A stretch of 64,000 nt of DNA, from NCBI RefSeq assembly GCF_003367175.1, contig NZ_QRGA01000018.1, positions 124,001-188,000 of the forward strand. Reading direction: 5' to 3'. The notes below the pieces were generated by a model that did no database searches, was not told the DNA's origin, and saw only the letters and a list, made by a program, of their open reading frames with translations. The stretch comes from Trinickia dinghuensis (GTDB lineage: Bacteria > Pseudomonadota > Gammaproteobacteria > Burkholderiales > Burkholderiaceae). Below, piece after piece: positions 39,038 to 51,875 of the stretch. Numbering within the stretch: position 1 is the stretch's first letter; each line of letters opens with the position of its first letter. The translations under genes and the position numbers were made by a program.

Positions 39038-39064
39038 GTTTCTCTGTTTCTCTGTTTCTCTGTT
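39038..39064 (+). repeat. octanucleotide tandem repeat upstream of the Smr gene
   Basis: Three perfect copies of GTTTCTCT plus GTT, ending 31 bases before the Smr gene start, inside its probable leader or promoter. Confidence 0.7.
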
Positions 39065-39095: not shown

Positions 39096-39833
39096 ATGTC
39101 GAAGAATCGTCCCCGTCAGAGCGAGACCCAGCGCCCCGTGGCCGGTGCGCGCGCGTCGGGTCTCGCCGATCTTTCCAAGCTGCGCGATGCATTGAAGCAA
39201 GACGCGGCCGAGCGCGAACGCGAGCGTATCGCGGCGGCCAAGGCCGCCCGCGAGGCGGCGGCGGACGCCGACCTGTTCCGGCGCGAGGTCGGCGACGTCG
39301 CGCCGATCGCCGCCGCGGCGCGCGCCGCCCACGGCCGCACGCCGCCGGAGGCGCTGCCGCTGCAGACCCGGCGCGACGAGCAAGCCGTGCTCAGCGAAGC
39401 GATCTCCGACGAATTCGATCCCGAAGTGCTGCTCGATACCGACGAGTCGCTGTTCTATTGCCGGCCCGGCATCAGCCATGAGGTCGTGCGCAAGCTGCGG
39501 CGCGGACATTGGATCGTGCAGGCGCAGCTCGACTTGCACGGCATGCGTCGCGACGAGGCGCGCGAGGCGCTGGCCGATTTCATCCGCGAAACGGTCAAAC
39601 GCGGGCTGCGCTGCGTGCGCGTGATTCACGGCAAGGGGCTCGGCTCCGTCGGCAAGGAACCCATATTGAAGGGCAAGGTGCGCGCGTGGCTCGTGCAAAA
39701 GGCCGAAGTCATAGCGTTTTGCCAGGCCCGGCCGCATGACGGCGGCGCGGGCGCCGTGCTCGTGCTGCTGCAGCCGGGTTCCGCCCGGCCAGGCACCACG
39801 CGCCCCGACCATGGGCCCGCCAGTGCACCCTAG
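39096..39833 (+). CDS. Smr domain protein
   Basis: A 245-aa protein with a charged N-terminal helix (DALKQDAAERERERIAAAKA) and a C-terminal Smr domain, QLDLHGMRRDEAREALADFI then CVRVIHGKGLGSVGKEPILK, which includes the DLHG and HGKG motifs of Smr nucleases. Stand-alone Smr proteins (SmrA/SmrB type) nick DNA or cleave mRNA on collided ribosomes; the N-terminal helix and length fit that group. The last 25 residues overlap the start of the next gene by 23 bases, so the two are coupled. Confidence 0.85.
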   Translation: MSKNRPRQSETQRPVAGARASGLADLSKLRDALKQDAAERERERIAAAKAAREAAADADLFRREVGDVAPIAAAARAAHGRTPPEALPLQTRRDEQAVLSEAISDEFDPEVLLDTDESLFYCRPGISHEVVRKLRRGHWIVQAQLDLHGMRRDEAREALADFIRETVKRGLRCVRVIHGKGLGSVGKEPILKGKVRAWLVQKAEVIAFCQARPHDGGAGAVLVLLQPGSARPGTTRPDHGPASAP

Positions 39834-40443
39834 GCTCACGTTCGCGCTCGCCATCATCGAGGGCCTCGCGATCCTCGCCTACGCCTTCTCCGGCTTCATC
39901 GAAGCGCGCAAACACCGGCTCGACGCCGTCGGCACGTTCCTCGTCGCACTGGCTACCGCATTCGGCGGCGGCACCGTGCGCGACGTGCTGCTCCAGCGGC
40001 GGCCGTTCTATTGGGTCGAGCACGAGACCTACGTCCTCGTCATCTTCGTGCTGTCGCTGTTCGCGCCGTTCGTGCTACGCATGGCCTCGCGCGTGTTCAA
40101 CGAGCGCGCATTGCTCATCGCCGATGCGATCGGCCTCGGCCTCTTCAGCATCTCGGGCACGTCGATCGCGCTCGACACGGGCATGCCGGCATTCATCGCC
40201 GTGATGATGGGCGTCGTAACAGGCGTATTCGGAGGCATCATTCGCGACGTCGTCTGCAACGAAATGCCGCTGTTGCTGCGCGACTCCCGCCCCTACGCGA
40301 CGTGCGCCTTCGTCGGCTGCTGGTTCTATCTGCTGCTCGACCATCTTCAACTCGATCCGGTCTACAGCGTCATCGCCGCCAGCGCCTTCATCCTCATCGC
40401 GCGGCTCGTCACGTTCAAGCTGAACGTTCGTCTGCCGCATTGA
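39811..40443 (+). CDS. trimeric intracellular cation channel family (UPF0126) protein
   Basis: A 210-aa inner-membrane protein with seven hydrophobic segments and an internal duplication of the TRIC fold. Each half has the GGGTVRDVLL / GGIIRDVVCN glycine-arginine-aspartate signature (FGGGTVRDVLLQRRPFYWVE and FGGIIRDVVCNEMPLLLRD). Bacterial members (YicG/YadS) form cation channels, with glycine transport proposed for some. The ATG at 39811 lies inside the 3' end of the Smr gene; the longer upstream frame is not conserved. Confidence 0.88.
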   Translation: MGPPVHPRLTFALAIIEGLAILAYAFSGFIEARKHRLDAVGTFLVALATAFGGGTVRDVLLQRRPFYWVEHETYVLVIFVLSLFAPFVLRMASRVFNERALLIADAIGLGLFSISGTSIALDTGMPAFIAVMMGVVTGVFGGIIRDVVCNEMPLLLRDSRPYATCAFVGCWFYLLLDHLQLDPVYSVIAASAFILIARLVTFKLNVRLPH

Positions 40444-40488: not shown

Positions 40489-41385
40489 CTAGACGGCCGT
40501 CACATTGACCGCCACGTCGACGACGTGCTCGCCGCCGCCGAGGATGATCCCGCGCAGCAGCGACACGTCACCGTAGTCGCGCCCCACCGCTAGCGTGACG
40601 TGGTCGAGATCCGCAAGCACGTCGTTCGTCGGATCGAGGTCGACCCAGCCCGTGCCCGGGCAGTACACCGATACCCAGGCGTGCGAGGCATCCGCGCCGA
40701 CGAGATTCGGCGTGCCCTCCGGCCGCACCGTACGGAGGTAGCCGCTCACATAGCGCGCCGCCAGCCCGAGCGAACGCAGCGCGCCGATCATCACCTGCGC
40801 GAAGTCCTGGCACACGCCCTGGCGCAGGCGAAAGGCACGCAGCGCGGGCGTGTCGAACGACGTCGTCTGCGGCTTGTAGGCGAAATCCGCGTGAATCCGA
40901 TGCATAAGGTCGATCGCGCCCGCGACGAGCGGCCTGCCCGGCGGGAAGCTCGGCAGCGCGTATTCGCGCAACTCGGGCGCCAGCGAGATGTTCGGCGAGG
41001 CGAAGACAAACTCGCTTTCGGGCATATACGTGCCGACCGCGCGATAACGCAGCGCATCCGCGACACCATCCCATGCCGGTGTCGCTGACGGCACGAGGCT
41101 GCCCCAGCGCCGCGTCAGCTCGACCGTGGTCTCGCTCGTCACCTGCAGGGACCCGTGCGGCGCATCGAAGGAAAAATAGCGCACTTCATTGCCGAAGGCG
41201 TCGACGTGCGACGTCTCGTACGACGGTGAAGGATCGATCCGCCAACGATAGGACATCACACGCTGCCAGGGACAATCGAGCGGACGGATCGTCGCAAGAT
41301 GCTGGGCCGTCTCGACGGGCATCGAATAGCGATAGGTCGTCTCGTGCGACACCGAGAGTCTGACATCGGCAACGTCGGCGCTCAT
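40489..41385 (-). CDS. transglutaminase-like protein, last gene of the ATP-grasp cluster
   Basis: A 298-aa cytoplasmic transglutaminase-fold protein (COG1305-type), probably a peptidase or amide-forming enzyme. The N-terminal beta-rich region (LSVSHETTYRYSMPVETAQH) is that of the family; the catalytic triad is C192 in RQGVCQDFAQVM, H235 in ADASHAWVSV and D251 in WVDLDPTND. No signal peptide. Its ATG overlaps the stop of the ATP-grasp/alpha-E fusion gene (ATGA), so the two are translationally coupled. It is the fifth gene of the leftward cluster. Confidence 0.9.
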   Translation of the reverse strand: MSADVADVRLSVSHETTYRYSMPVETAQHLATIRPLDCPWQRVMSYRWRIDPSPSYETSHVDAFGNEVRYFSFDAPHGSLQVTSETTVELTRRWGSLVPSATPAWDGVADALRYRAVGTYMPESEFVFASPNISLAPELREYALPSFPPGRPLVAGAIDLMHRIHADFAYKPQTTSFDTPALRAFRLRQGVCQDFAQVMIGALRSLGLAARYVSGYLRTVRPEGTPNLVGADASHAWVSVYCPGTGWVDLDPTNDVLADLDHVTLAVGRDYGDVSLLRGIILGGGEHVVDVAVNVTAV

Positions 41386-44033
41386 GACGACACCCTCGAG
41401 GCAAGCGCGTTATCCGCGTGAATGAAATAGCGCGCACTGATCTCGTTCGCCGCACCGGCGACATGCGAAGCAAGCTCGGCGCACAGTTCGGCGAGCGTCG
41501 CGTAGCGTCCCGCCACATCGGTACCGCAGAGACGTTCGAGCGAAGGCAGCGCCGACACCGGCGGCATCGCCTCGCCGAACGGCCGTCGCGACGCACCGCC
41601 CGCGACGGCGGCGATCTCGTCGAGCTTTTTCGCGAGGCGTTCGTACACGCCGTAGAGCCCGCGCGGATTCATCGGATCGACGACGACGAGATCGAGCAGC
41701 GCCGGCACCTCGAGCCGCCCGGGATAGAGCGACCGATAAGTCAGGGTGCTGTCGAACAGTTGCAGCAAGAGATCGAAGCCGGCCGGCGTGGCCAGAACGC
41801 CCGCATCGGCCACGACGTGCAGGAACGTCGTCATGCCGATCACGCGTTCGATATGGCGGCCCGCGAAGAGCAGCCGCCATGCCTCGTCCCGCACCATGCG
41901 GTCGCCCTGCGCGCCGCTGATGGCGGACAGCTGCATGGCCAGTGTCTCGAGCGCGCTCATCAGCGCGACACGATCGTACGATTCGTAGCGCTCGCCGCGC
42001 TGCGCGTCGTCGCCGTTATGCTCGGCGCCCCCACCCATGCACGGAGCAAGCGAAAGCGCATGCAGCGCATCGCGGAAATCGTTGCGTGCCGCGAGAATGG
42101 TGCGCCAGTGATCGTTCGAGAGCCGCGCGCGAATCTCGCCGCACGCGCGCGCTTGGCTCGCGATGATCCGGCCCACGCTCGCTGTGCCGGAGTGCTCGTG
42201 CAGACCGGCTGCAAGCGCGCGTTCGAACGCATGGCGCGTGCCGCGCGCGGCCGGATCGACGGCCGGGATCAGTTCGAAGCGCGCGGCCAGCTCGGCGAGC
42301 GTCGAGAGCATGTCCTCGGAATCGTGATTGTCGAGCGAGCCTAGGATCAAGCGCGCGAGCCGCACGCTGTTTTCCGCTCGCTCGCAATAGCGCCCCGCCC
42401 AAAAGAGATTCTCGGCCGCACGGCTCGACACAGTGCGTCGGCGATGCGCGAAATCGCCGGGTTTCATCGGCGAAGGCAGCAATGAGAACGTCGAACCGGG
42501 CCGGCTCGACAACACCCACGTATCGACGCTGCTGCCGCCCGATTGCATCGAGACGCTCGTTTGCCGCTCGCCGGCCATGCGCGTGAACGCGCCCGGCAAC
42601 ACGTGCCAGCCGCCCGACACGCCGGCGATCGCGTAGACGCGCAGCGCACAGGGCCGGTGGGTCAAGGCGCCGTCCTCGTAGCGCGGCGTGCACGAGTGCG
42701 GCAGCGGAGCTTGGATGGTGAACGCGTCGGGTGCCGCCTCGATGCGCGCGCGCCAGTCGGCGAGCGGCTGCGGGCCGGCCGCGAGACCCGGCGGCATATC
42801 GGACGATACGGGGTGAGGCAATCCGGTCCACGTCGGCACGAGCCACCCTTGTTCAAGCTGGGCCAGCGCGTCCTCGCGCACGGCCGCTTCGCCGCACCAC
42901 CAACTGGCGACGCTCGGCAATGCGAGCGTTTCGCCGAAGAGCGCATCGGCGATGCCAGGCAGAAACCCATGCAGCGCGGGCGACTCGACGACACCGGCGC
43001 CGGGCGCGTTCGAGACGACCACGTTGCCGGCGCGCATGACCTGCAGCAGGCCGGGCACACCGATCGTGGAATCGGCCCGCAGTTCGACCGGGTCGCAAAA
43101 ACTATCGTCCAGCCGGCGCAGCAGGCCATGCACGCGCTCGAGGCCAGCCAGCGTCTTCAGATAAAGCTTGTCGCCGCGCACCGTGAGATCGGTGCCTTCG
43201 ACGAGCGTGAGGCCGAGATAGCGCGAGAGAAACACATGCTCGAAGTACGTCTCGCTGAAAGGGCCGGGGCTCAGCAAGGCGATGTGAGGAGAGCCGGCGC
43301 GCGCGCGGCGCTCGTCGTCGGTCATCGTCGTGCGCGCCGCCTGCGCGAGCGTGGCGATCAGTTGCGAATACGACGGCGCGAGACGCTGCACGCCGAGCGA
43401 GCGAAACGGCTCGGCAAACAGGCCGGCGACGATCAGCCGGTTCTCGAGTGCATAGCCGAGCCCCGACGGCGCCTGCGTGCGGTGTCCCATGACGGTCCAC
43501 GCGCCGCCCGGCCCGCGCGCCAAGTCGACGGCGACGATCTGCAAGTAGCGTCCGCCCGGCGGCACGCAGCCTTTCATCGCGCGCAGATAGCCGGGGTGCC
43601 CGAATACTAGCGCCGGCGGCAGCAGCCCTCGTGCCAGGACCGCTTGCTGCCCGTAGATGTCCGCGACGAGCGCTTCGAGGAGCCGCGCGCGCTGCGCGAC
43701 GCCGCGTTCGATCACGGCCCATTCGTCCTCGTCGATGATGAACGGCAGCGGATCGAGCGCCCATGGCCGAGACTCGCCGTTGTCGGCATAGGCGTTGTAT
43801 GTGATGTCGTTGTCGCGGACCTGCCGCGCAACCGCGGTCGCGGCCTGCTCGAGGCCGGCCACGCCGTCTTCGCCGAGCAGGCCGAAAAAGCGCCGCCACG
43901 GCGCGCGCAGCGCACCCGCGGCATCGCGCAGTTCGTCCCAGTGGCCCTCGCGCGCCGGAACGTCGGCGAGGCGCGCGAGAACATCGGTGACATCGGCCGC
44001 GGCACCGAACGGCAGGGTCGATTGGAAAGGCAA
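41382..44033 (-). CDS. circularly permuted ATP-grasp and alpha-E fusion protein
   Basis: An 883-aa two-module protein. Residues 1-490 are a circularly permuted ATP-grasp ligase (COG2308-type): GHRTQAPSGLGYALENRLIV, then SDPVELRADSTIGVPGLLQV-like segment CDPVELRADSTIGVPG, and VVVSNAPGAGVVESPALHGF. Residues 510-860 are an alpha-E helical domain (DUF403/COG2307): RTVSSRAAENLFWAGRYCER and AENSVRLARLILGSL, then MVRDEAWRLLFAGRHIERVI. The same two modules exist as separate proteins two genes upstream. ATP-grasp enzymes join a carboxylate to an amine with ATP, so a peptide or amide ligase role is expected; the substrates are unknown. Confidence 0.9.
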   Translation of the reverse strand: MPFQSTLPFGAAADVTDVLARLADVPAREGHWDELRDAAGALRAPWRRFFGLLGEDGVAGLEQAATAVARQVRDNDITYNAYADNGESRPWALDPLPFIIDEDEWAVIERGVAQRARLLEALVADIYGQQAVLARGLLPPALVFGHPGYLRAMKGCVPPGGRYLQIVAVDLARGPGGAWTVMGHRTQAPSGLGYALENRLIVAGLFAEPFRSLGVQRLAPSYSQLIATLAQAARTTMTDDERRARAGSPHIALLSPGPFSETYFEHVFLSRYLGLTLVEGTDLTVRGDKLYLKTLAGLERVHGLLRRLDDSFCDPVELRADSTIGVPGLLQVMRAGNVVVSNAPGAGVVESPALHGFLPGIADALFGETLALPSVASWWCGEAAVREDALAQLEQGWLVPTWTGLPHPVSSDMPPGLAAGPQPLADWRARIEAAPDAFTIQAPLPHSCTPRYEDGALTHRPCALRVYAIAGVSGGWHVLPGAFTRMAGERQTSVSMQSGGSSVDTWVLSSRPGSTFSLLPSPMKPGDFAHRRRTVSSRAAENLFWAGRYCERAENSVRLARLILGSLDNHDSEDMLSTLAELAARFELIPAVDPAARGTRHAFERALAAGLHEHSGTASVGRIIASQARACGEIRARLSNDHWRTILAARNDFRDALHALSLAPCMGGGAEHNGDDAQRGERYESYDRVALMSALETLAMQLSAISGAQGDRMVRDEAWRLLFAGRHIERVIGMTTFLHVVADAGVLATPAGFDLLLQLFDSTLTYRSLYPGRLEVPALLDLVVVDPMNPRGLYGVYERLAKKLDEIAAVAGGASRRPFGEAMPPVSALPSLERLCGTDVAGRYATLAELCAELASHVAGAANEISARYFIHADNALASRVSS

Positions 44034-44060
44034 ATTGCTCTCTGGCTTCGGTCAGTGCAG

Positions 44061-47000
44061 TCAGTCGTCGAGCCCGGCACGCCGCAGATCGAGAGTAAAA
44101 GGCATCTCGAGGCTGCGCTCGCGCGTCTTCACGGGCATCGGTCCGGGCGTATGGCCGATTGTGAAGAAGCGCGCACGCCGCCGGCTCTGCGCTTCATAAG
44201 CGTTGACGGGAAACGTCTGATAATTTCGTCCACCCGGATGGGCGACATGATACTGGCATCCGCCGAGAGAGCGCGCGGCCCAGCTATCGAAAAGATCGAA
44301 CGTGAGCGGCGCATGTGCACCGATGGTCGGGTGCAGCGATGCGGCCTGCTGCCACGCGCGAAAGCGCACGCCGGCCACATACTCGCTTGCGCGGCCCGTC
44401 GGCTGCAGCGGCACCGGCACGCCATTGACCGTCACCCTATGGCGGTTTTCGTTGAGGCCGAGCGCGCGTACCTCGATGCGCTCGAGCGACGAATCGACGA
44501 AGCGCACGGTGCCTCCCGGCGCCCCCTCCTCGCCCATCACGTGCCAAGGCTCGAGCGCATGACGCAGCGTCAGCGTGACGCCGCTCGCGTCGAATTCGCC
44601 GACGAGCGGAAAGCGGAACTCGAAGTGCGGCGCGAACCAGGCACGGTCGAACGCATAGCCGGCCGCGCGCAGATCGGCCAGGACATCGTCGAAGTCCATC
44701 TGCACGAACGTGCCGAGCATGAAGCGATCGTGCAGTTCGGTGCCCCAGCGGGTGAGCCTCGTCTGATAGGGCGTGTGCCAGAAGCGCGCCACGAGCGCGC
44801 GCAGCAGAAGCTGTTGCGCAAGGCTCATGCGCGCGTGCGGCGGCATCTCGAAGCCGCGCAGCTCGAGTAGCCCGAGCCGGCCCGCTGGGCCATCGGGCGA
44901 GTAGAGCTTGTCGACACAGAACTCGGCGCGGTGCGTGTTGCCGGTCACGTCGATGAGAATGTTGCGCAGCGCGCGGTCGATGAGCCAAGGCGGCACCCGC
45001 TGCCCCCCTTCGCCGAGCGCCCCCAACCCATCCAGCTGCCGCTGCAGCTCTCGAAACGCGATCTCGAGTTCGTAGACCTGGTCGTTGCGGGCTTCGTCGA
45101 CGCGCGGCGCCTGGCTCGTCGGGCCGATGAACAGCCCCGAAAACAAATACGACAACGAAGGGTGGTTATGCCAATAGGCGATGAGACTCGCAAGCAAATC
45201 GGGGCGGCGCAGGAGCGGACTGTCCGCGGGCGTCGCCGCGCCGAGAACCATGTGATTGCCGCCGCCCGTGCCGGTATGGCGCCCGTCGAGCATGAACTTC
45301 TCCGGCCCGAGATACGACTCGTGCGCGGCGCGGTAGAGAAACTCGGTGTTATCGACGAGGTCGCGCCAGGTCGAAGCCGGATGAATGTTGACTTCGACGA
45401 CACCCGGATCCGGCGTGACCTGCAGCATCTTCAGGCGGGCATCGCGCGGCGGCGGATAACCTTCGATGACGATCTTGACCCGCAGCTCCGCCGCCGTCGC
45501 CTCGACGGCCGCCAGCAGATCGAGGTAATCGTCGAGTGCGGCAAACGGCGGCATGAAGACATAAAGCGCCCCGCCCTTGCGCCCCGCCACTACCGCATCG
45601 GCCTCGGCCTGCGGCCCGGCCGCGCGCGCGGGATCGCGCGCCTCCACGCAAAGCGCCGTGCGCCGTACCGACGACGCCGATTCGCCGCGCTCGGGCACGC
45701 GCGCGTCGGATGAGGCGGCGCGCCGGCTTGCCGCCCGGTCTCGCTCCCGATCCGCTATGGGCTCGCCGCCCGCGTCGCGCGACCCATACTGCGCGCGCAG
45801 TTGCGCGGCGCCGCGCAAGGCCGGCGGCGGAGCGAACGGGTCGTGCTCGTGCAGCCATGGATAGTCGGCCGCGCTCACCCAAGGCAGCGAATCGAGCGGC
45901 AGACGATAGCCCATCGGCGAATCGCCGGGAATCAGATACATGCGCTCGTCGCGGAAGAACCAGGGCCCCGTGACCCAGCGCGGCCCGGCGAGCGTGGCCG
46001 CCGTATCGCGTTCGCGGGCAAGCGGCAGCGCATAGCCCGTCACCGCCGAGAGCCCGGCGTCGAAGACGCGCCTGAGCCGCAGCCGCTCGAGTTCGTCGTT
46101 CAGGCGCGAGTCGAACGGATCGACGTTGACCGGCAGGCGCCGCTCGCGCCAGAGGTAATACCAGACATCTTCGTAGCCGGGCTGCACCTGGCCGGCGTCG
46201 ACCGCGAGCTTATCCGCGAGACGGCGAATGAATCGCTCGGCATCCTCCGCCGTATAGCTCATCGGCTCGCGTTCATCGGCGAAGCGGGTCGGGTCGTGCC
46301 AGCACGGCTCGCCGTCCGCGCGCCAGAAAAGCGACAGCGCCCAGCGCGGCAGTTGCTCGCCCGGATACCACTTGCCCTGCCCCACATGGAGGAACCCGTT
46401 CGCACCGTAGCGTGCGCGCAGCTTGTCCATCAGCGAGACCGCATAGCCGCGCTTGGTCGGCCCGAGCGCATCGGTGTTCCACTCGGGCGCATCACGGTCG
46501 CGCACGGAAATGAAAGTGGGCTCGCCGCCCATCGTGAGGCGCACGTCCATCGACGCCAGATCGTCGTCGACCTTAGCGCCCATGCACTCGATGTCGCGCC
46601 AAACCGCTTCGTCGTAAGGCTTCGTCACGCGCGGCGTCTCGAGTACGCGCGTAATCGACATGGCGTGCGCGAATTCGACCTCGCACTCGTCGAGCGCCCC
46701 CGAGACGGGCGCGGCGCTGCCGGGCTGCGGCGTGCAGGCCACGGGAATATGCCCTTCTCCGGCCATCAGCCCCGACGTGGGATCGAACCCGATCCAGCCG
46801 GCGCCCGGCAGATAGACCTCGCACCAGGCATGCAGATCGGTGAAGTCGACCTCCGTGCCGCTCGGGCCGTCGAGCGCCTTCTCATCAGGGGCGAGCTGCA
46901 ACAGATAGCCCGACACGAAGCGCGCGGCGAAGCCGAGCTGACGCAGCGTTTCGACGAGCAGCCATCCCGTGTCGCGGCACGAGCCCGAGCGATTCTCGAG

Positions 47001-47519
47001 CGTCTCCTCCGGCGTCTGCACGCCGGGCTCCATGCGAATCAGATACCGGACCTCGCGCGCGAGCCGCTGGTTGAGCGCGACGAGAAAGTCGACGGTGCGG
47101 CACGACGCGCGGTCGATGCTTTCGACGAAGGCGGCAAACCGCGATGTCGGTTCAACCGTGCGCGCGAGATACGGAGCGAGCTCGGCGGCCAGCGCCGGCG
47201 CATAGTCGAACGGGAAGGTCTCCGCCTCGGGCTCGAGGAAGAAATCGAATGGGTTATAGACCGACATCTCGGCCACGAGATCGACGGTGACCGTGAACTC
47301 GCGCGTGGGCTCGGGAAAGACGAGACGTGCCTGGTAGTTCGCAAAGGCATCCTGCTGCCAATTGACGAAGTGATTGGCCGGCTCGACGCGCATCGAATAG
47401 CTGAGGATAGGCGTGCGGCAGTGCGGCGCCGGCCGCAGCCGGACGATTTGCGGCCCTAGCGTAACGAGGCGGTCATAGCGGTACTGCGTGACATGATTCA
47501 GCGCGACGCGGATCGACAC
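44061..47519 (-). CDS. large transglutaminase/DUF2126 protein
   Basis: A 1152-aa protein. The N-terminal 300 residues are a transglutaminase domain with C181 in [13 protein letters not shown], H230 in [17 protein letters not shown] and D246 in [11 protein letters not shown]. The rest is the DUF2126 region: [40 protein letters not shown] and [20 protein letters not shown] early, and [20 protein letters not shown] later, a His-rich motif reminiscent of glutamine-synthetase-type amidoligases. Thus it may couple peptide cleavage with amide bond formation. A variable, Arg- and Ser-rich stretch (about residues 575-640) separates the two halves. Third gene of the cluster. Confidence 0.88.
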   Translation of the reverse strand: [1152 protein letters not shown]

Positions 47520-47569
47520 GGGGGAACCTCGATGCGATGAGCGAAACGATTCGATTCAAGCCGCGGCAC

Positions 47570-48685
47570 TCAGGCCGCGTGCGGTTGCGAGGGCGACTGC
47601 GACTGCGATTGGGATTGGGATTGGGATTGGGATTGGGATTGGGATTGGGATTGAGACTGCGATTGAGAGGTAGACGGAGGTTGCGAGGACGCTTGCGAAC
47701 CCGCTTGCGCTTCGTCGGACGCCGGCTCGGGGGCGAGCGGCACGAGGAAGTCACGGCTGATGCAACTGCCGAGTTCGTTGATGCGCACGAGAAACTCGGT
47801 CAGCCAAACATGTAGGCCGCCGCGCAGAATGTTGCCGATCTGCGAAGCGCGCACGTCCGCATGCAACTGCGCGGTCATCGCTTCGGCCTGCGCGGAGCGG
47901 GCGTTGCGCACGTGCGTGATGATCTGCCTCAATTCGTCGAGGCTTGCCGCGAGCGAGCGCGGCCAGTCGGCGAACAAGATCAGCAGATTGGCGACGCGCT
48001 CGGGCACGATGACGTCGCGATAGACCTTCCGATATACCTCGAACCCGGAGACCGAGCGCAGCACCGCGGCCCAGTGATAGTAGTCGAGCGACTGCGCGAG
48101 CGGCTGCGCCAGTGCACTGCCGCGCTGCTCCAGCATTTCGTATTTCACGTCGAGAATGCGCGCGGTGTTGTCGGCCCGTTCGAGAAAAGTGCCGAGCCGC
48201 ATGAAGTAAAACGCTTCGTCCCTCACCATCGTGCCGAGCTGCACGCCGCGCGACAAATGGGAGCGGAATTTGACCCACTCGAAGAACTCGCACGGATCGC
48301 GCTCGAGCACGCCGTCGGCGAGCATACGCTGCGCATCGAGCCACGTTGTGTTGATCGTCTCCCAGAGTTCGGTCGTGATCGAGCCGCGCACGGCTCGCGC
48401 GTTTTCGCGCGCGGCCCGCAAGCAGTTGATGATCGAGGAGAGATTGTCGCGGTCGCTCGCCATGAAGGCGATCACCTCGCGGCTCGTCAGGCTCGGATGC
48501 GCGGCCGCGTAGATACCGGCGAGCTCCGAGATCGACAGCATCGCGCGCCAGCCGAGCGCCGCATACTCGTCCGACTGCGGCAAGAGCGCGAGCTGATAGT
48601 TGGCATCGAGCATGCGCGCCGTGTTTTCGGCGCGCTCGGTATAACGTGCCATCCAGAAGAGATGGTCGGCGGTGCGGCTCAGCAT
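47570..48685 (-). CDS. alpha-E domain protein with Ser-Gln repeat tail
   Basis: A 371-aa all-helical alpha-E protein (DUF403/COG2307). The start MLSRTADHLFWMARYTERAE and the repeat ADNTARILDVKYEMLEQRGS are the family signature; FVKFRSHLSRG-type EWVKFRSHLSRGVQLGTMVR follows. GGAG precedes the ATG. After about residue 320 the fold ends and a low-complexity tail of Ser-Gln repeats (PSTSQSQSQSQ and so on) runs to PSQPHAA. The tail is encoded by a perfect hexanucleotide repeat and so is likely variable in length between strains. Alpha-E proteins always accompany the ATP-grasp partner; function unproven. Confidence 0.9.
   Translation of the reverse strand: MLSRTADHLFWMARYTERAENTARMLDANYQLALLPQSDEYAALGWRAMLSISELAGIYAAAHPSLTSREVIAFMASDRDNLSSIINCLRAARENARAVRGSITTELWETINTTWLDAQRMLADGVLERDPCEFFEWVKFRSHLSRGVQLGTMVRDEAFYFMRLGTFLERADNTARILDVKYEMLEQRGSALAQPLAQSLDYYHWAAVLRSVSGFEVYRKVYRDVIVPERVANLLILFADWPRSLAASLDELRQIITHVRNARSAQAEAMTAQLHADVRASQIGNILRGGLHVWLTEFLVRINELGSCISRDFLVPLAPEPASDEAQAGSQASSQPPSTSQSQSQSQSQSQSQSQSQSQSQSQSPSQPHAA
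47607..47648 (-). repeat. hexanucleotide microsatellite in the alpha-E gene
   Basis: Seven perfect copies of GATTGG on the plus strand (CCAATC on the coding strand, read as Ser-Gln codons), followed by degenerate copies GATTGA, GACTGC and GATTGA. Because the unit is six bases, gain or loss keeps the frame and changes only the number of Ser-Gln pairs. Confidence 0.95.
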
Positions 48686-48770
48686 GATGGCTCCGGCGTG
48701 GCGTGTTCCGTGTTCCGTTTTCAATAGCAATGTCGATCGGTGCAAGCGCACGTATGCACGTATGCGCGGA

Positions 48771-50243
48771 TTACCGTTCGAGCACCCACGTATCCTTGGT
48801 GCCGCCTCCTTGCGAAGAGTTGACGACGAGCGAGCCCTCGCGCAAGGCGACACGCGTGAGACCGCCCGGCACCATGCGCACTTCGCTGCCGGAAAGCACG
48901 AACGGGCGCAAATCGATATGGCGCGGGGCAATGCCGCTTTCGACATAGGTCGGGCACGTCGACAGCGCGAGCGTGGGCTGCGCGATGTATTTCTCGGGCT
49001 GCGCGACGAGCACGGCGCGAAACGCCTCGATCTCGGCCGTCGTCGAAGCGGGCCCGACCAGCATGCCGTAGCCGCCCGCGCCGTGCGTTTCCTTGACGAC
49101 CAGCTCTGGCAAATGGTCGAGCACGTAGCGAAGATCGTCCGGCTTGCGGCACATCCAGGTCGGCACGTTGTTGAGGATCGGCTCCTCGCCGAGATAGAAC
49201 CGGATCATGTCCGGCACGTACGGATAGATGGACTTGTCGTCGGCCACGCCGGTGCCGACCGCGTTCGCCAGCGTCACGTTGCCGGCGCGATACGCCGACA
49301 GCAAGCCTGCCGCGCCGAGCGTCGAGTCGGAGCGAAAGACCTCGGGGTCGAGGAAGTCGTCGTCGACTCGCCGGTAAATGACGTCGACGCGCTGCGGCCC
49401 CTGCGTGGTGCGCATGTAGACGAAGCCGCCGTCGACGAACAGGTCCTGCCCCTGGACCAGCTCGACGCCCATCTGCTGCGCGAGAAACGCATGCTCGAAA
49501 TAAGCCGAGTTGTACATGCCCGGTGTCAGCACGACGATCGTCGGATTTTCCGTGCCGTGCGGCGCGGCCGCTCGCAACGTATCGAGCAGCAGGTCCGGAT
49601 AGTGCGCAACGGGTGCGACGCGGTTCCGCGCAAAGAGATCGGGGAACAGCCGCATCATCATCTTGCGGTTTTCAAGCATGTACGACACGCCGGACGGCAC
49701 GCGCAGGTTGTCCTCGAGCACGTAGAACTCGCCCTCCCCCGCGCGCACGATGTCGATGCCGGCGATATGCGCGTAGATGTCGCGCGCCACGTCCACCCCT
49801 TGCATCTGCGGCCGGTACTGCCCGTTGGCGAGAATCTGCTCGGCGGGAATGACGCCCGCGCGCACGATCGCCTGCTCGTGATAGATGTCGTGAATGAACC
49901 GATTCAGCGCGCCCACACGCTGGCGCAGCCCCTGCTCGAGGGCGGCCCACTCGTGTGCCGGAAAGATGCGGGGGATGACGTCGAACGGGATTGTCCGTTC
50001 CGTGCCGACACCGTTTGTGTCCTTGGCGCCGTAGACGGCGAAGGTGATGCCGACGCGGCGGAAGTTCAGATCGGCTTCCGCGCGCTTGTTGCTCATCTGC
50101 CGCTCGCTCTGCGCGCACATCCACGCGAAGAACTGGCTATAGTGCGCGCGGGCCTCGCCGCACCCGTGGAAGTCGGCGGCCGGTACGCCCGCGATAGCGG
50201 GCCCGTCGCGCTCGAACATCTCGCTGAAGAAAGCTTGCTGCAT
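48771..50243 (-). CDS. circularly permuted ATP-grasp protein, first gene of the cluster
   Basis: A 490-aa stand-alone circularly permuted type 2 ATP-grasp ligase (COG2308-type). Conserved segments: FYVLEDNLRVPSGVSYMLEN, VDVIYRRVDDDFLDPEVFRS, DSTLGAAGLLSAYRAGNVTL, LPELVVKETHGAGGYGMLVG (Lys and Gly-rich ATP loop) and SGIAPRHIDLRPFVLSGSEV. No alpha-E domain is attached, unlike the paralogue at 41-44 kb. The start MQQAFFSEMFERDG is weakly supported by GGGAA upstream. It leads the leftward cluster, with 85 bases before the alpha-E gene. Confidence 0.9.
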   Translation of the reverse strand: MQQAFFSEMFERDGPAIAGVPAADFHGCGEARAHYSQFFAWMCAQSERQMSNKRAEADLNFRRVGITFAVYGAKDTNGVGTERTIPFDVIPRIFPAHEWAALEQGLRQRVGALNRFIHDIYHEQAIVRAGVIPAEQILANGQYRPQMQGVDVARDIYAHIAGIDIVRAGEGEFYVLEDNLRVPSGVSYMLENRKMMMRLFPDLFARNRVAPVAHYPDLLLDTLRAAAPHGTENPTIVVLTPGMYNSAYFEHAFLAQQMGVELVQGQDLFVDGGFVYMRTTQGPQRVDVIYRRVDDDFLDPEVFRSDSTLGAAGLLSAYRAGNVTLANAVGTGVADDKSIYPYVPDMIRFYLGEEPILNNVPTWMCRKPDDLRYVLDHLPELVVKETHGAGGYGMLVGPASTTAEIEAFRAVLVAQPEKYIAQPTLALSTCPTYVESGIAPRHIDLRPFVLSGSEVRMVPGGLTRVALREGSLVVNSSQGGGTKDTWVLER

Positions 50244-50709
50244 GGCCGATATTCCCGTTCGTTGTTCGGGGCCGTCGGCGCGAAAGCGCACGGCCCCCGG
50301 TCGAGCCCGGCTGCCGTCCGTTCAGGGCGCAGCCGTTCGGTATCAAGCATTCTTCGATCGAGGCGGCGGCACGCGGCGGCCGACCTCGGCAGTCCGATCC
50401 GAACCTCGAATACGGACTCCCCGTCAAGGTAGCTGGCGGCGAAGCGTTGCGCGATACGGGGAAAACCCGCGTCACCGCTCGGCCTGCATCCAATCAGGGG
50501 TTGGAACGAATTTACGCAACTTGTATGCCGATGCCGGCGTGGCGGGCTTGAGCGGGCATCGAATCGCGTGGAGCCACGGATCGGGCCGGTCGTCGCGCAC
50601 TCGAATGGAGCATGGCCAGCAACGCAAAAATCTGCGCGCACCGAGCGAGAGCAAGTTGGGGAAGAAGCGGAGGGACAACCAGGACGGAGGAAAACGCCCC
50701 AAACGACGC
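50244..50709. other. intergenic region upstream of the ATP-grasp cluster
   Basis: About 465 bases between the ATP-grasp gene and the end of the sugar ABC operon. It should hold the promoter of the cluster. I see no tRNA, no repeat and no convincing open frame; several long overlapping frames lack ribosome-binding sites. Confidence 0.4.
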
Positions 50710-50728
50710 GGGGCGCATGAAGCGCCCC
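50710..50728 (-). terminator. hairpin after the ABC transporter operon
   Basis: Stem GGGGCGC/GCGCCCC with a five-base loop, 28 bases past the ATPase stop on the minus strand. The following minus-strand sequence (GCGTCGTTTGGGGCGTTTT) has only short T-runs, so termination may be partial. Confidence 0.55.
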
Positions 50729-50756
50729 GTTTATATAGCAATTGCTTAATTAGCGT

Positions 50757-51875
50757 TTAGGCGATGCGTGCTTCCGTCGACGGATCGAACAGCACGGCCT
50801 TCGAGACGTCGGCGAGCAGCGTCATGTCTTGCTGCGCTTGCGGATTCGAGGCCGGGTGCACGCGGCTGACCGTGCGCTTGCCGTTGATCTGCGAGAAGAC
50901 GAGCGTGTCCGGGCCCGTCGGCTCGATCACGTCGACCCGCACCTTCAACGGCTGCAGATCGCTGCTATTGGCGTCGTGCGCGCCACGCGCATCGGTGAGA
51001 CGCTCGGGGCGCAGGCCGAGAATGACCTTTTGCCCGATGCTCGGCTTCACGCGATTGGCTTCGAACGGCAGCTTCAAAACCCCGCGCTCGACACCCGTAT
51101 CGACTTCGATCCCGACGCCCGCGCCCTGCTCCACGAGCTTGCCTTCGATGAAGTTCATCGGCGGCGCGCCGATGAAGCCGGCCACGAACAGGTTCGACGG
51201 CGAATCGTAGATATCCTGCGGCGCGCCGAACTGCTGAACGATGCCGTCCTTCATCACGGCGATGCGATCGCCGAGCGTCATCGCTTCGATCTGGTCGTGC
51301 GTCACGTAGACGATCGTCGTGCCCAAGCGTTGATGCAGTAGCTTGATCTCCGAGCGCATCTCGATCCGCAGCTTCGCATCGAGGTTCGAGAGCGGCTCGT
51401 CGAACAGGAACATCACGGGATCGCGCGCCAGCGCACGGCCCATCGCCACGCGCTGACGCTGGCCGCCCGACAACTGCCCGGGCTTGCGGTCGAGCAGGTG
51501 ATCGATCTGCAGCATCTGCGACACGCGATCGACGATCTGCGCCTGTTCCTGCTTCGGCACCTTGCGGATGTTCAAGCCGAACGAGATGTTCTGGCGCACC
51601 GTCATCGACGGATAGAGCGCGTACGACTGGAACACCATGGCGATGTCGCGATCCTTCGGCGAGAGGTCGTTGACGACCTTGCCGCCGATTTGGATCTCGC
51701 CCTTCGTCACGGTTTCCAGCCCCGCGATCATATTGAGGAGCGTCGACTTACCGCAGCCGGAGCCGCCGACGAGAATCAGGAACTGACCGTCCTCGATCTC
51801 GATGTCGACGCCCTTGAGAACGGGCACGCCGTTCGGGTAAGTCTTGTACACGTCACGGATGGAAAGGCTTGCCAT
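50757..51875 (-). CDS. sugar ABC transporter ATP-binding protein
   Basis: A 372-aa ATPase of the MalK/UgpC (CUT1) class. Walker A GGSGCGKST at residues 37-45, signature LSGGQRQRVAMGRALARDP near 135, Walker B VMFLFDEPLSN. The C-terminal regulatory domain (GAPPMNFIEGKLVEQGAGVG, VILGLRPERLTD) of the MalK type is present. It is the fourth gene of a leftward operon with a solute-binding protein and two permeases, next to the divergent glucose catabolic operon, so glucose or a related sugar is the probable cargo. Confidence 0.93.
   Translation of the reverse strand: MASLSIRDVYKTYPNGVPVLKGVDIEIEDGQFLILVGGSGCGKSTLLNMIAGLETVTKGEIQIGGKVVNDLSPKDRDIAMVFQSYALYPSMTVRQNISFGLNIRKVPKQEQAQIVDRVSQMLQIDHLLDRKPGQLSGGQRQRVAMGRALARDPVMFLFDEPLSNLDAKLRIEMRSEIKLLHQRLGTTIVYVTHDQIEAMTLGDRIAVMKDGIVQQFGAPQDIYDSPSNLFVAGFIGAPPMNFIEGKLVEQGAGVGIEVDTGVERGVLKLPFEANRVKPSIGQKVILGLRPERLTDARGAHDANSSDLQPLKVRVDVIEPTGPDTLVFSQINGKRTVSRVHPASNPQAQQDMTLLADVSKAVLFDPSTEARIA

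What the first reader, a model, noticed from the sequence alone, without database searches (positions are those of the whole stretch)
40489..50243. Five-gene ATP-grasp / alpha-E / transglutaminase cluster, a predicted peptide-ligase system
Sequence shows five leftward genes with short gaps or overlaps: ATP-grasp, alpha-E, transglutaminase with DUF2126, ATP-grasp fused to alpha-E, and a second transglutaminase. Established knowledge: these families co-occur and were predicted by comparative genomics to make and recycle peptide or amide products. Inference: the doubled set here could run two steps, or make two different products, from a modified peptide. There is no obvious precursor peptide or transporter in the cluster, so the substrate is open. 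This is the best candidate for a poorly described pathway in the window.
Basis: partly seen in the sequence, partly recalled or inferred. Interest (0 to 1): 0.7.

Follow-up and report, generated by a model that had tools for sequence, protein, structure and literature searches.

The report
Amide-ligase gene cluster with dead subunit
Five neighbouring bacterial genes look like a machine that joins an acid to an amine and can undo the bond, and the second copy of one of its bond-making enzymes appears to have lost its working parts while still being kept by evolution.

Summary
Five leftward genes (40489-50243) encode a circularly permuted (CP) ATP-grasp, an Alpha-E protein, a transglutaminase-like (TG) domain fused to DUF2126, a CP ATP-grasp fused to Alpha-E, and a second TG. 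The same five-gene order occurs in 25 of 129 distinct neighbourhoods examined. Within the window's genus the block lies at different sites, and its flanking genes are adjacent where it is absent.

The system type is already predicted in print, usually with the proteasome-like peptidase Anbu. First, the fused gene's ATP-grasp is not a second canonical ligase: 94 of 94 free-standing ATP-grasps keep six key positions, 115 of 115 fused ones keep at most one. The fused branch is one clade (support 1.0), found in isolates of three phyla, and is under purifying selection: a conserved pseudo-ATP-grasp. Second, DUF2126 is the likelier second ligase: its conserved charged residues are intact and its fold weakly resembles glutamine synthetase. 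No Anbu match was found in 11 of 11 genus genomes.

Best reading: a reversible amide ligase/thiol-amidase unit with two active ligases of different folds and one non-catalytic partner. Substrate and product remain unknown.

The parts
48771..50243 (-). P0005: free-standing circularly permuted ATP-grasp, predicted active amide ligase
   Evidence: PF14403 566.5 bits, PF04174 511.8 bits; nearest solved chain 3n6x, E 1.7e-213; E193/N195/R197/K353/K400/D460 kept in 94 of 94 free homologues
47570..48685 (-). P0004: Alpha-E protein with two ERA[E/D]NTAR motifs (residues 104 and 256 of the long ORF)
   Evidence: PF04168 308 bits; motif positions; best sequence match in the PDB has E 0.37, i.e. none credible
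47607..47665 (-). 6-bp tandem repeat (9.8 copies) coding for the Ser-Gln tail of P0004
   Evidence: translation
46710..47519 (-). P0003 N-terminal transglutaminase-like thiol enzyme, triad C181/H230/D246
   Evidence: triad 125 of 125 (124 distinct sequences); fold match to 3isr, E 8.8e-12
44082..46691 (-). P0003 DUF2126 domain, predicted glutamine-synthetase-like carboxylate-amine ligase
   Evidence: PF09899 1308.9 bits; E333, K383, E388, E709, N711, H756, E809, H863, R864 in 125 of 125; weak fold matches to glutamine synthetases, best E 5.5e-3
42510..43940 (-). P0002 N-terminal pseudo-ATP-grasp domain
   Evidence: PF14403 423.8 bits; at most 1 of 6 canonical residues in 115 of 115 fused proteins; fold kept, 3n6x E 2.1e-30; residues 405-420, where the Gly-rich loop would be, pLDDT < 50
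41424..42428 (-). P0002 C-terminal Alpha-E domain
   Evidence: PF04168 177.9 bits
40489..41385 (-). P0001: transglutaminase-like thiol enzyme, triad C192/H235/D251
   Evidence: Cys and His 118 of 118, Asp 117 of 118 (exception L218); nearest solved chain 6g49, E 1.3e-11
50244..50756 (-). Leader between the upstream ugpC-like gene and P0005; a GC hairpin seen by eye at about 50728-50710 might separate the transcription units
   Evidence: the hairpin is read by eye and was not called by the terminator scan, which found 7 sites against 7.0 in shuffles

Best explanation
One operon-like unit for reversible amide-bond chemistry. Step 1 (inferred from fold and intact residues): P0005 activates a carboxylate with ATP and joins it to an amine. 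Step 2 (inferred): the DUF2126 domain of P0003, a glutamine-synthetase-like ligase, makes a second such bond on the same or a related substrate. Step 3 (inferred): the papain-fold thiol domains, the N-terminus of P0003 and P0001, hydrolyse or transfer the amide, so P0003 is a ligase and amidase in one chain, laid out like glutathionylspermidine synthetase/amidase. Step 4 (residue loss shown by sequence, role inferred): the ATP-grasp half of P0002 is a conserved pseudoenzyme that keeps the fold but not the canonical residues and most likely acts, with its Alpha-E half, as a docking or activating partner. This version occurs without Anbu. Substrate, product and direction are not shown.
For: Residues: free ATP-grasp 94 of 94 with all six positions, fused 115 of 115 with one or none; six duplicates and two partial ORFs dropped first. 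Of 108 positions invariant in the free set (93 or more of 94), 32 are kept in under 10% of fused proteins, including E193, N195, R197, D351-K353, G406, Y408, G409, H458, D460 and N491, while 45 are kept in over 90%, including D180, R183, R462 and D500, so the fold is held but the active centre is not. Fused forms are one clade (FastTree support 1.0, branch 0.92, read from the raw tree). dN/dS 0.07-0.145 for the pseudo-domain against four genus members, versus 0.05-0.09 for the free enzyme. An actinobacterial isolate (L213), an acidobacterial isolate (L214) and acidobacterial and verrucomicrobial metagenome bins (L208, L210) show the same loss. P0002's model matches 3n6x, glutathione synthetases and glutathionylspermidine synthetase/amidase. 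DUF2126 model: weak matches to glutamine synthetases, prob 1.00 for 9n4x; its family was placed among carboxylate-amine ligases (M. tuberculosis Rv2566; PMC2588565, passage seen). A free ATP-grasp from an Anbu operon releases phosphate from ATP in vitro (PMC6376114, section 8 read). Order TG-DUF2126, ATP-grasp-Alpha-E, TG in 105 of 129 distinct neighbourhoods. The block has moved within the genus.
Against: I found no activity, substrate or phenotype for these five proteins. The reading of E193/N195 as metal ligands rests on recalled analogy to other ATP-grasps (ExN motif); no coordinates were inspected. K400 is kept in 69 of 115 fused proteins, and D180, R183 and R462 in over 90%, so nucleotide binding, or even unusual chemistry, is not excluded. 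The glutamine-synthetase match of DUF2126 is weak (best E 5.5e-3) and its model only moderate (mean pLDDT 71.4). More distant pairs gave higher dN/dS for the fused protein (0.21-0.23 with L094, 0.55-0.85 with L091); there dS no longer grows with divergence, so I do not use them, but they are not evidence for constraint. TG-DUF2126 occurs without a fused gene nearby in some neighbourhoods, and in G046, G052, G058 and G059 the whole genome has only one ATP-grasp match, so the pseudo-domain is not always needed. The published test of the Anbu-operon proteins found no stable complex.
Confidence: 0.55

Rival explanations
1. Protein-tagging system: the ligases attach a small group or peptide to proteins and the thiol domains remove it, as proposed for Anbu operons.
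For: Published hypotheses for the Anbu operon (PMC6376114 and PMC5666114, passages seen); an Anbu match in 24 of 26 non-genus Burkholderiales genomes with a strong free ATP-grasp.
Against: No Anbu match in 11 of 11 genus genomes, 8 of which have the ATP-grasps and DUF2126; no small ORF conserved over its length in the leader; published pull-downs found no specific interaction of the operon proteins and no Anbu peptidase activity.
Confidence: 0.2
2. Biosynthesis of a small bioactive amide or peptide released to the outside.
For: A review table lists a metagenomic clone (jj117) with ATP-grasp, alpha-E, transglutaminase and protease genes among anthelmintic or nematicidal activities, citing a PhD thesis (PMC7764037, table passage and reference seen; thesis not seen). 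The block lies at different sites and is missing from 3 of 11 genus genomes, and one copy lies on an Enterobacter plasmid.
Against: The compound is given as unknown and the causal gene is not stated in what I read; no exporter appeared among the recurrent neighbours; the core pair is in 132 of 249 genomes of the phylum sample, broader than I would expect of a specialised metabolite cluster.
Confidence: 0.18
3. Nitrogen-scavenging route: amide and isopeptide bonds are mainly broken, with the ligases working in salvage.
For: Published: Anbu is raised under nitrogen limitation in Pseudomonas putida (PMC5666114, passage); the same domains are co-abundant with urea-metabolism domains in marine metagenomes (PMC3597751, passages); a table of predicted RpoN sites lists a CP_ATPgrasp_1 gene (PMC13207237, table passage).
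Against: In the window the sigma-54 pattern search gave 61 hits against 68.7 expected by chance, and the one in the leader (50516-50530) has two mismatches. Two ATP-consuming ligases are odd for a purely degradative route.
Confidence: 0.12
4. P0002's ATP-grasp domain is still an enzyme that uses different residues.
For: Purifying selection within the genus; 45 of 108 positions are kept, including D180, R183, R462 and D500; new residues are themselves fixed, e.g. G in place of S203 in 115 of 115 and R in place of N195 in 108 of 115.
Against: All 115 fused proteins keep at most one of the six scored residues, and the glycine-rich loop is lost in most; the loop region has low confidence in the model.
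Confidence: 0.12

Closest known systems
ATP-grasp / Alpha-E / transglutaminase / Anbu operon (Iyer et al. 2009, Valas and Bourne 2008, as cited in PMC6376114 and PMC5666114)
   Same: Free CP ATP-grasp, Alpha-E and TG families in one operon-like block.
   Different: No Anbu match in this genome; the block adds TG-DUF2126 and a pseudo-ATP-grasp fused to Alpha-E. Whether Iyer et al. noted the lost residues could not be checked (paper not held).
TG-fused carboxylate-amine ligase family (DUF2126, PF09899; M. tuberculosis Rv2566)
   Same: P0003 has the same architecture and a full-length profile match.
   Different: Nothing tested separates it; it looks like an ordinary member.
Glutathionylspermidine synthetase/amidase
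   Same: Related ATP-grasp fold (matches) paired with a papain-type thiol amidase; ligase and amidase in one chain is also the layout of P0003 (the enzyme's domain layout is recalled).
   Different: The amidase family and the ligase fold of P0003 differ; substrate unknown. Analogy only.
Methylobacillus flagellatus 3n6x 'putative glutathionylspermidine synthase'
   Same: Closest solved relative of P0005 by sequence (E 1.7e-213).
   Different: Its title is an annotation; I know of no tested function (recalled).
Pupylation (PafA)
   Same: Ligase of the same carboxylate-amine/ammonia ligase superfamily that makes amide bonds (PMC2588565, passages).
   Different: That paper reports no small Pup-like ORF beside the TG-fused family; I did not search for Pup.

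Membership tests
ATP-grasp/Alpha-E/TG peptide-synthesis system (broad sense) | CP ATP-grasp with canonical active residues | tested here: met
   P0005; 94 of 94 free homologues keep all six scored positions
ATP-grasp/Alpha-E/TG peptide-synthesis system (broad sense) | Alpha-E protein in the same block | tested here: met
   PF04168 308 bits; co-occurrence with strong ATP-grasp matches 132 of 132
ATP-grasp/Alpha-E/TG peptide-synthesis system (broad sense) | TG-like enzyme with Cys-His-Asp triad | tested here: met
Anbu operon (narrow sense) | Anbu gene | tested here: not met
   PF00227 finds one match in G000, taken as HslV; the Anbu protein query finds none in 11 of 11 genus genomes
DUF2126 putative amidoligase (PF09899) | Full-length profile match and conserved charged residues | tested here: met
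   positions 1-826/826, 1308.9 bits
DUF2126 putative amidoligase (PF09899) | Amide ligase activity | not testable with these tools
   needs protein
Glutamine synthetase fold | Fold match of the DUF2126 domain | tested here: inconclusive
   Foldseek best E 5.5e-3, prob 1.00, target TM 0.30; model pLDDT 71.4
Active ATP-grasp ligase (P0002) | ExNxR, Gly-rich loop, K353, D460 | tested here: not met
   115 of 115 fused proteins keep at most one of the six scored residues
Graspetide / RiPP cluster | Conserved precursor peptide ORF | tested here: inconclusive
   only the 515-nt leader was examined, against five relatives: no small ORF conserved over its length, best partial match 44% over 88 of 133 residues in L099; precursors elsewhere not searched
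Pupylation | Pup and a proteasome | not tested
   Pup was not searched; PF00227 and Anbu searches only

The most novel reading that the evidence does not exclude
The pseudo-ATP-grasp/Alpha-E protein is an obligate non-catalytic activator or substrate-holding partner of a ligase (P0005 or the DUF2126 domain). It arose once and spread, by descent or transfer, to at least three phyla: an old, widespread bacterial ligase pair made of one live and one dead ATP-grasp, which in this genus runs without the proteasome-like Anbu.
Probability: 0.3. Interest if true: 0.72.

Novelty: new variant of a known kind. Interest (0 to 1): 0.5.

Why it matters
The core pair of this system is in about half of the sampled genomes of its phylum (132 of 249), yet none of the listings and passages I saw names a substrate or product. 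Showing that one of the apparent ligases is a conserved pseudoenzyme, that the second ligase is most likely DUF2126, and that the block persists where no Anbu is found turns a loose 'doubled set' into specific tests: which two proteins turn over ATP, and which one only helps. A metallopeptidase family that tends to travel with the system gives a further handle.

Tried and rejected
Two canonical ATP-grasps: rejected by residue counts. P0002 as a decaying pseudogene: rejected by within-genus dN/dS and one long-branched clade. RiPP precursor in the leader: the stretch of about 130-240 nt next to the gene matches three of five relatives as DNA (L101, L099, L100); small ORFs match only in part (best 44% over 88 of 133 residues, L099), so not convincing but not excluded. 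Sigma-54 or sigma-70 promoter: no signal above shuffles. Known fold for Alpha-E: no credible sequence relative in the PDB (best E 0.37); in the fold search of the two-domain model the 48 best matches are 3n6x, glutathione-synthetase and glutathionylspermidine- or trypanothione-synthetase-type chains, E. coli YgiC and one chain titled Ligase Cp1B, and the next have E 0.46 or more (50 of 318 rows shown); Alpha-E was not folded alone. Neighbours that recur mainly within one lineage (ComEC in 21 loci, radical SAM and lysine-decarboxylase-like genes in 9-10 loci) were not followed. NCBIfam gave no match for the five proteins at E <= 0.001. Iyer et al. 2009 could not be read; what I say of it comes from papers that cite it and from recall.
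Full report
WHAT IS THERE. Five minus-strand genes fill 40489-50243, each with Pfam matches far over cut-off. From 5' to 3' of the transcript they are P0005 (CP ATP-grasp), P0004 (Alpha-E), P0003 (TG + DUF2126), P0002 (CP ATP-grasp + Alpha-E) and P0001 (TG). The longest ORF of P0004 overlaps P0005, but its Pfam match begins at residue 88, where an ATG lies (48685), so the likely gap is 85 nt. Upstream on the same strand is a ugpC-like ABC ATPase (50757-51875); downstream and convergent is a PF03458 membrane protein (39736-40443).

SOURCE. The window lies in G000, 7.37 Mb in 49 contigs. In the one named scan the best DUF2126 relatives are Paraburkholderia and Caballeronia (77-79% identity), and records very near the window may be left out there. 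No bench test is proposed in the window's organism.

ONE UNIT. I compared 130 neighbourhoods: 40 that I picked from DUF2126 hits, 80 from the named scan, 9 plasmid stretches out of 117 plasmid records with a match, and the window. One is a duplicate record (L161 = L130). Of 129 distinct ones, 105 hold TG-DUF2126, ATP-grasp-Alpha-E and TG in that order on one strand, and 25, the window included, hold the five-gene order. Nearly all were chosen through DUF2126 or P0002 and some are cut by contig ends, so these are not prevalences. Inside the genus, 8 of 11 genomes have two ATP-grasps and DUF2126, and three (G003, G007, G009) have neither. All five genes were seen in the window and in the four genus neighbourhoods fetched (G001, G002, G005, G008: L099, L101, L102, L100); in G004, G006 and G010 only the ATP-grasps and DUF2126 were located. 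In the three genomes without the block, the matches to ugpC and to the PF03458 gene lie 49-114 bp apart. In G005, G008 and G010 they also lie 49-52 bp apart and the block is elsewhere. In G001, G002 and G004 the block lies between them as in the window, though G001 has about 3 kb more between ugpC and the ATP-grasp; G006 looks the same as G001 but is split by a contig end within DUF2126. So the block has been gained, lost or relocated; where it was fully seen, the five genes stayed together in order.

CO-OCCURRENCE. In 249 genomes of the phylum: Alpha-E 132, strong CP-ATP-grasp 132 (the same genomes), DUF2126 71, all inside that set. Four genomes with weak ATP-grasp matches were set aside; by Pfam's cut-off the ATP-grasp tally is 133, one more than Alpha-E. 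Relatedness was not corrected for.

THE PSEUDO-ATP-GRASP. I collected 211 ATP-grasp ORFs after removing 6 duplicates, dropped 2 partial ones, and aligned 94 free and 115 fused. All 94 free proteins keep E193, N195, R197, K353, K400 and D460 (P0005 numbering). Among the 115 fused, 74 keep one of these and 41 keep none; K400 is kept in 69. N195 is R in 108. The alignment is anchored by kept neighbours (P199, S200, G201, Y204, R209). E-x-N as a metal-binding pair and the glycine-rich loop as the ATP lid are recalled from other ATP-grasp enzymes, not computed here. Of 108 free-invariant positions, 45 are kept, 31 partial and 32 lost. The fused proteins form one clade with support 1.0 in the raw tree (rerooted trees also gave a label of 0.175 for the same branch, an effect of rerooting). 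Beyond Pseudomonadota the fused set holds isolates of Tsukamurella (Actinomycetota, L213) and Granulicella (Acidobacteriota, L214); L208, L210 and L186 are metagenome bins, whose labels may be wrong. dN/dS of the domain against four genus members is 0.07-0.145 (free enzyme 0.05-0.09); with L094 it is 0.23 and with L091 0.55 (Alpha-E half 0.21 and 0.85), where dS no longer grows with divergence. The AlphaFold model (mean pLDDT 82.6) keeps the fold, but residues 405-420 have low confidence. Foldseek: 3n6x, then eukaryotic glutathione synthetases and glutathionylspermidine synthetase/amidase.

THE OTHER PARTS LOOK ALIVE. TG of P0003: C181, H230 and D246 in 125 of 125; DUF2126 positions E333, K383, E388, E709, N711, H756, E809, H863, R864 and E866 in 125 of 125, while R771, R772, D808 and N861 vary in 1 to 10; P0001-type TG: C192 and H235 in 118 of 118, D251 in 117. 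These two sets hold 124 and 117 distinct sequences. The DUF2126 model is moderate (pLDDT 71.4); its solid matches are to the TG half, and glutamine synthetases follow with E 5.5e-3 and worse.

ANBU AND A METALLOPEPTIDASE. An Anbu protein query finds a match in 25 of 61 relatives. Among 26 non-genus genomes with a strong free ATP-grasp, 24 have Anbu; G021 and G039 do not. In the window's genus it is 0 of 11, including the 8 with the block. This is probably one loss event, so no p-value is claimed. Separately, a Peptidase_Mx (PF15887) gene recurs near the system in 13 of 121 neighbourhoods clustered and occurs in 33 of 249 genomes, 32 of them with the system (Fisher p = 4.9e-9, uncorrected for relatedness). 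No match in the window's genome.

LITERATURE. For each paper only passages or the named section were seen. PMC6376114 (passages, section 8): the four-gene Anbu operon; its ATP-grasp releases phosphate from ATP; no Anbu peptidase activity; no specific interaction detected. PMC5666114 (passages): same operon, nitrogen limitation. PMC2588565 (passages): Rv2566 as TG fused to a carboxylate-amine ligase. PMC3597751 (passages): co-abundance with urea domains. PMC7764037 (table passage and reference): antinematode clone, thesis not seen. PMC13207237 (table passage): predicted RpoN site. PMC12239564 (passages): a different ATP-grasp/inactive-TG system. PMC8665760 (term search): the terms operon, ATP-grasp, alpha-E and transglutaminase do not occur. 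'DUF2126' occurs in no paper of the library. In the listings and passages of my searches I saw no statement that the fused ATP-grasp is inactive, but the key 2009 paper was not readable, so this is no claim of priority.

VERDICT. Real, conserved, and a variant of a predicted but, as far as I could find, uncharacterised system. The new content is the pseudo-ATP-grasp, the reassignment of the second ligase to DUF2126, the absence of Anbu, and the evidence that the genes move together.

Noticed in passing
L215:6153-15344 (NZ_CP116251.1, Enterobacter roggenkampii IncFII plasmid): The complete five-gene block sits on a 90-kb plasmid, in a stretch with transposase genes (IS6/IS26, IS110) on both sides; no other plasmid record and no E. 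coli genome matched it in megablast.
   Followed up: partly
L095:10891-12387 and 33 of 249 genomes: Peptidase_Mx with a zinc ribbon recurs near the ATP-grasp/Alpha-E system (13 of 121 neighbourhoods) and co-occurs with it in 32 of 33 genomes.
   Followed up: partly
window 47607-47665: A 6-bp tandem repeat (9.8 copies) gives P0004 a Ser-Gln tail that could vary in length between strains.
   Followed up: no
P0004 residues 104-114 and 256-266: Alpha-E holds the motif ERA[E/D]NTARxLD twice, suggesting an internal duplication; 66 of 102 free Alpha-E ORFs show two or more ERx[ED]N motifs.
   Followed up: partly
L213 (Tsukamurella plasmid), L216 (Sphingomonas plasmid): Fused pseudo-ATP-grasp-Alpha-E plus TG without a DUF2126 gene in the fetched stretch; it may lie elsewhere in the genome.
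   Followed up: no
G033 contig C1 574330-575366: Genome with Anbu matches (in two pieces) and an ATP-grasp broken into three pieces with a stop.
   Followed up: no
window 39038-39064: 8-bp tandem repeat (3.4 copies) just upstream of the Smr-domain gene.
   Followed up: no
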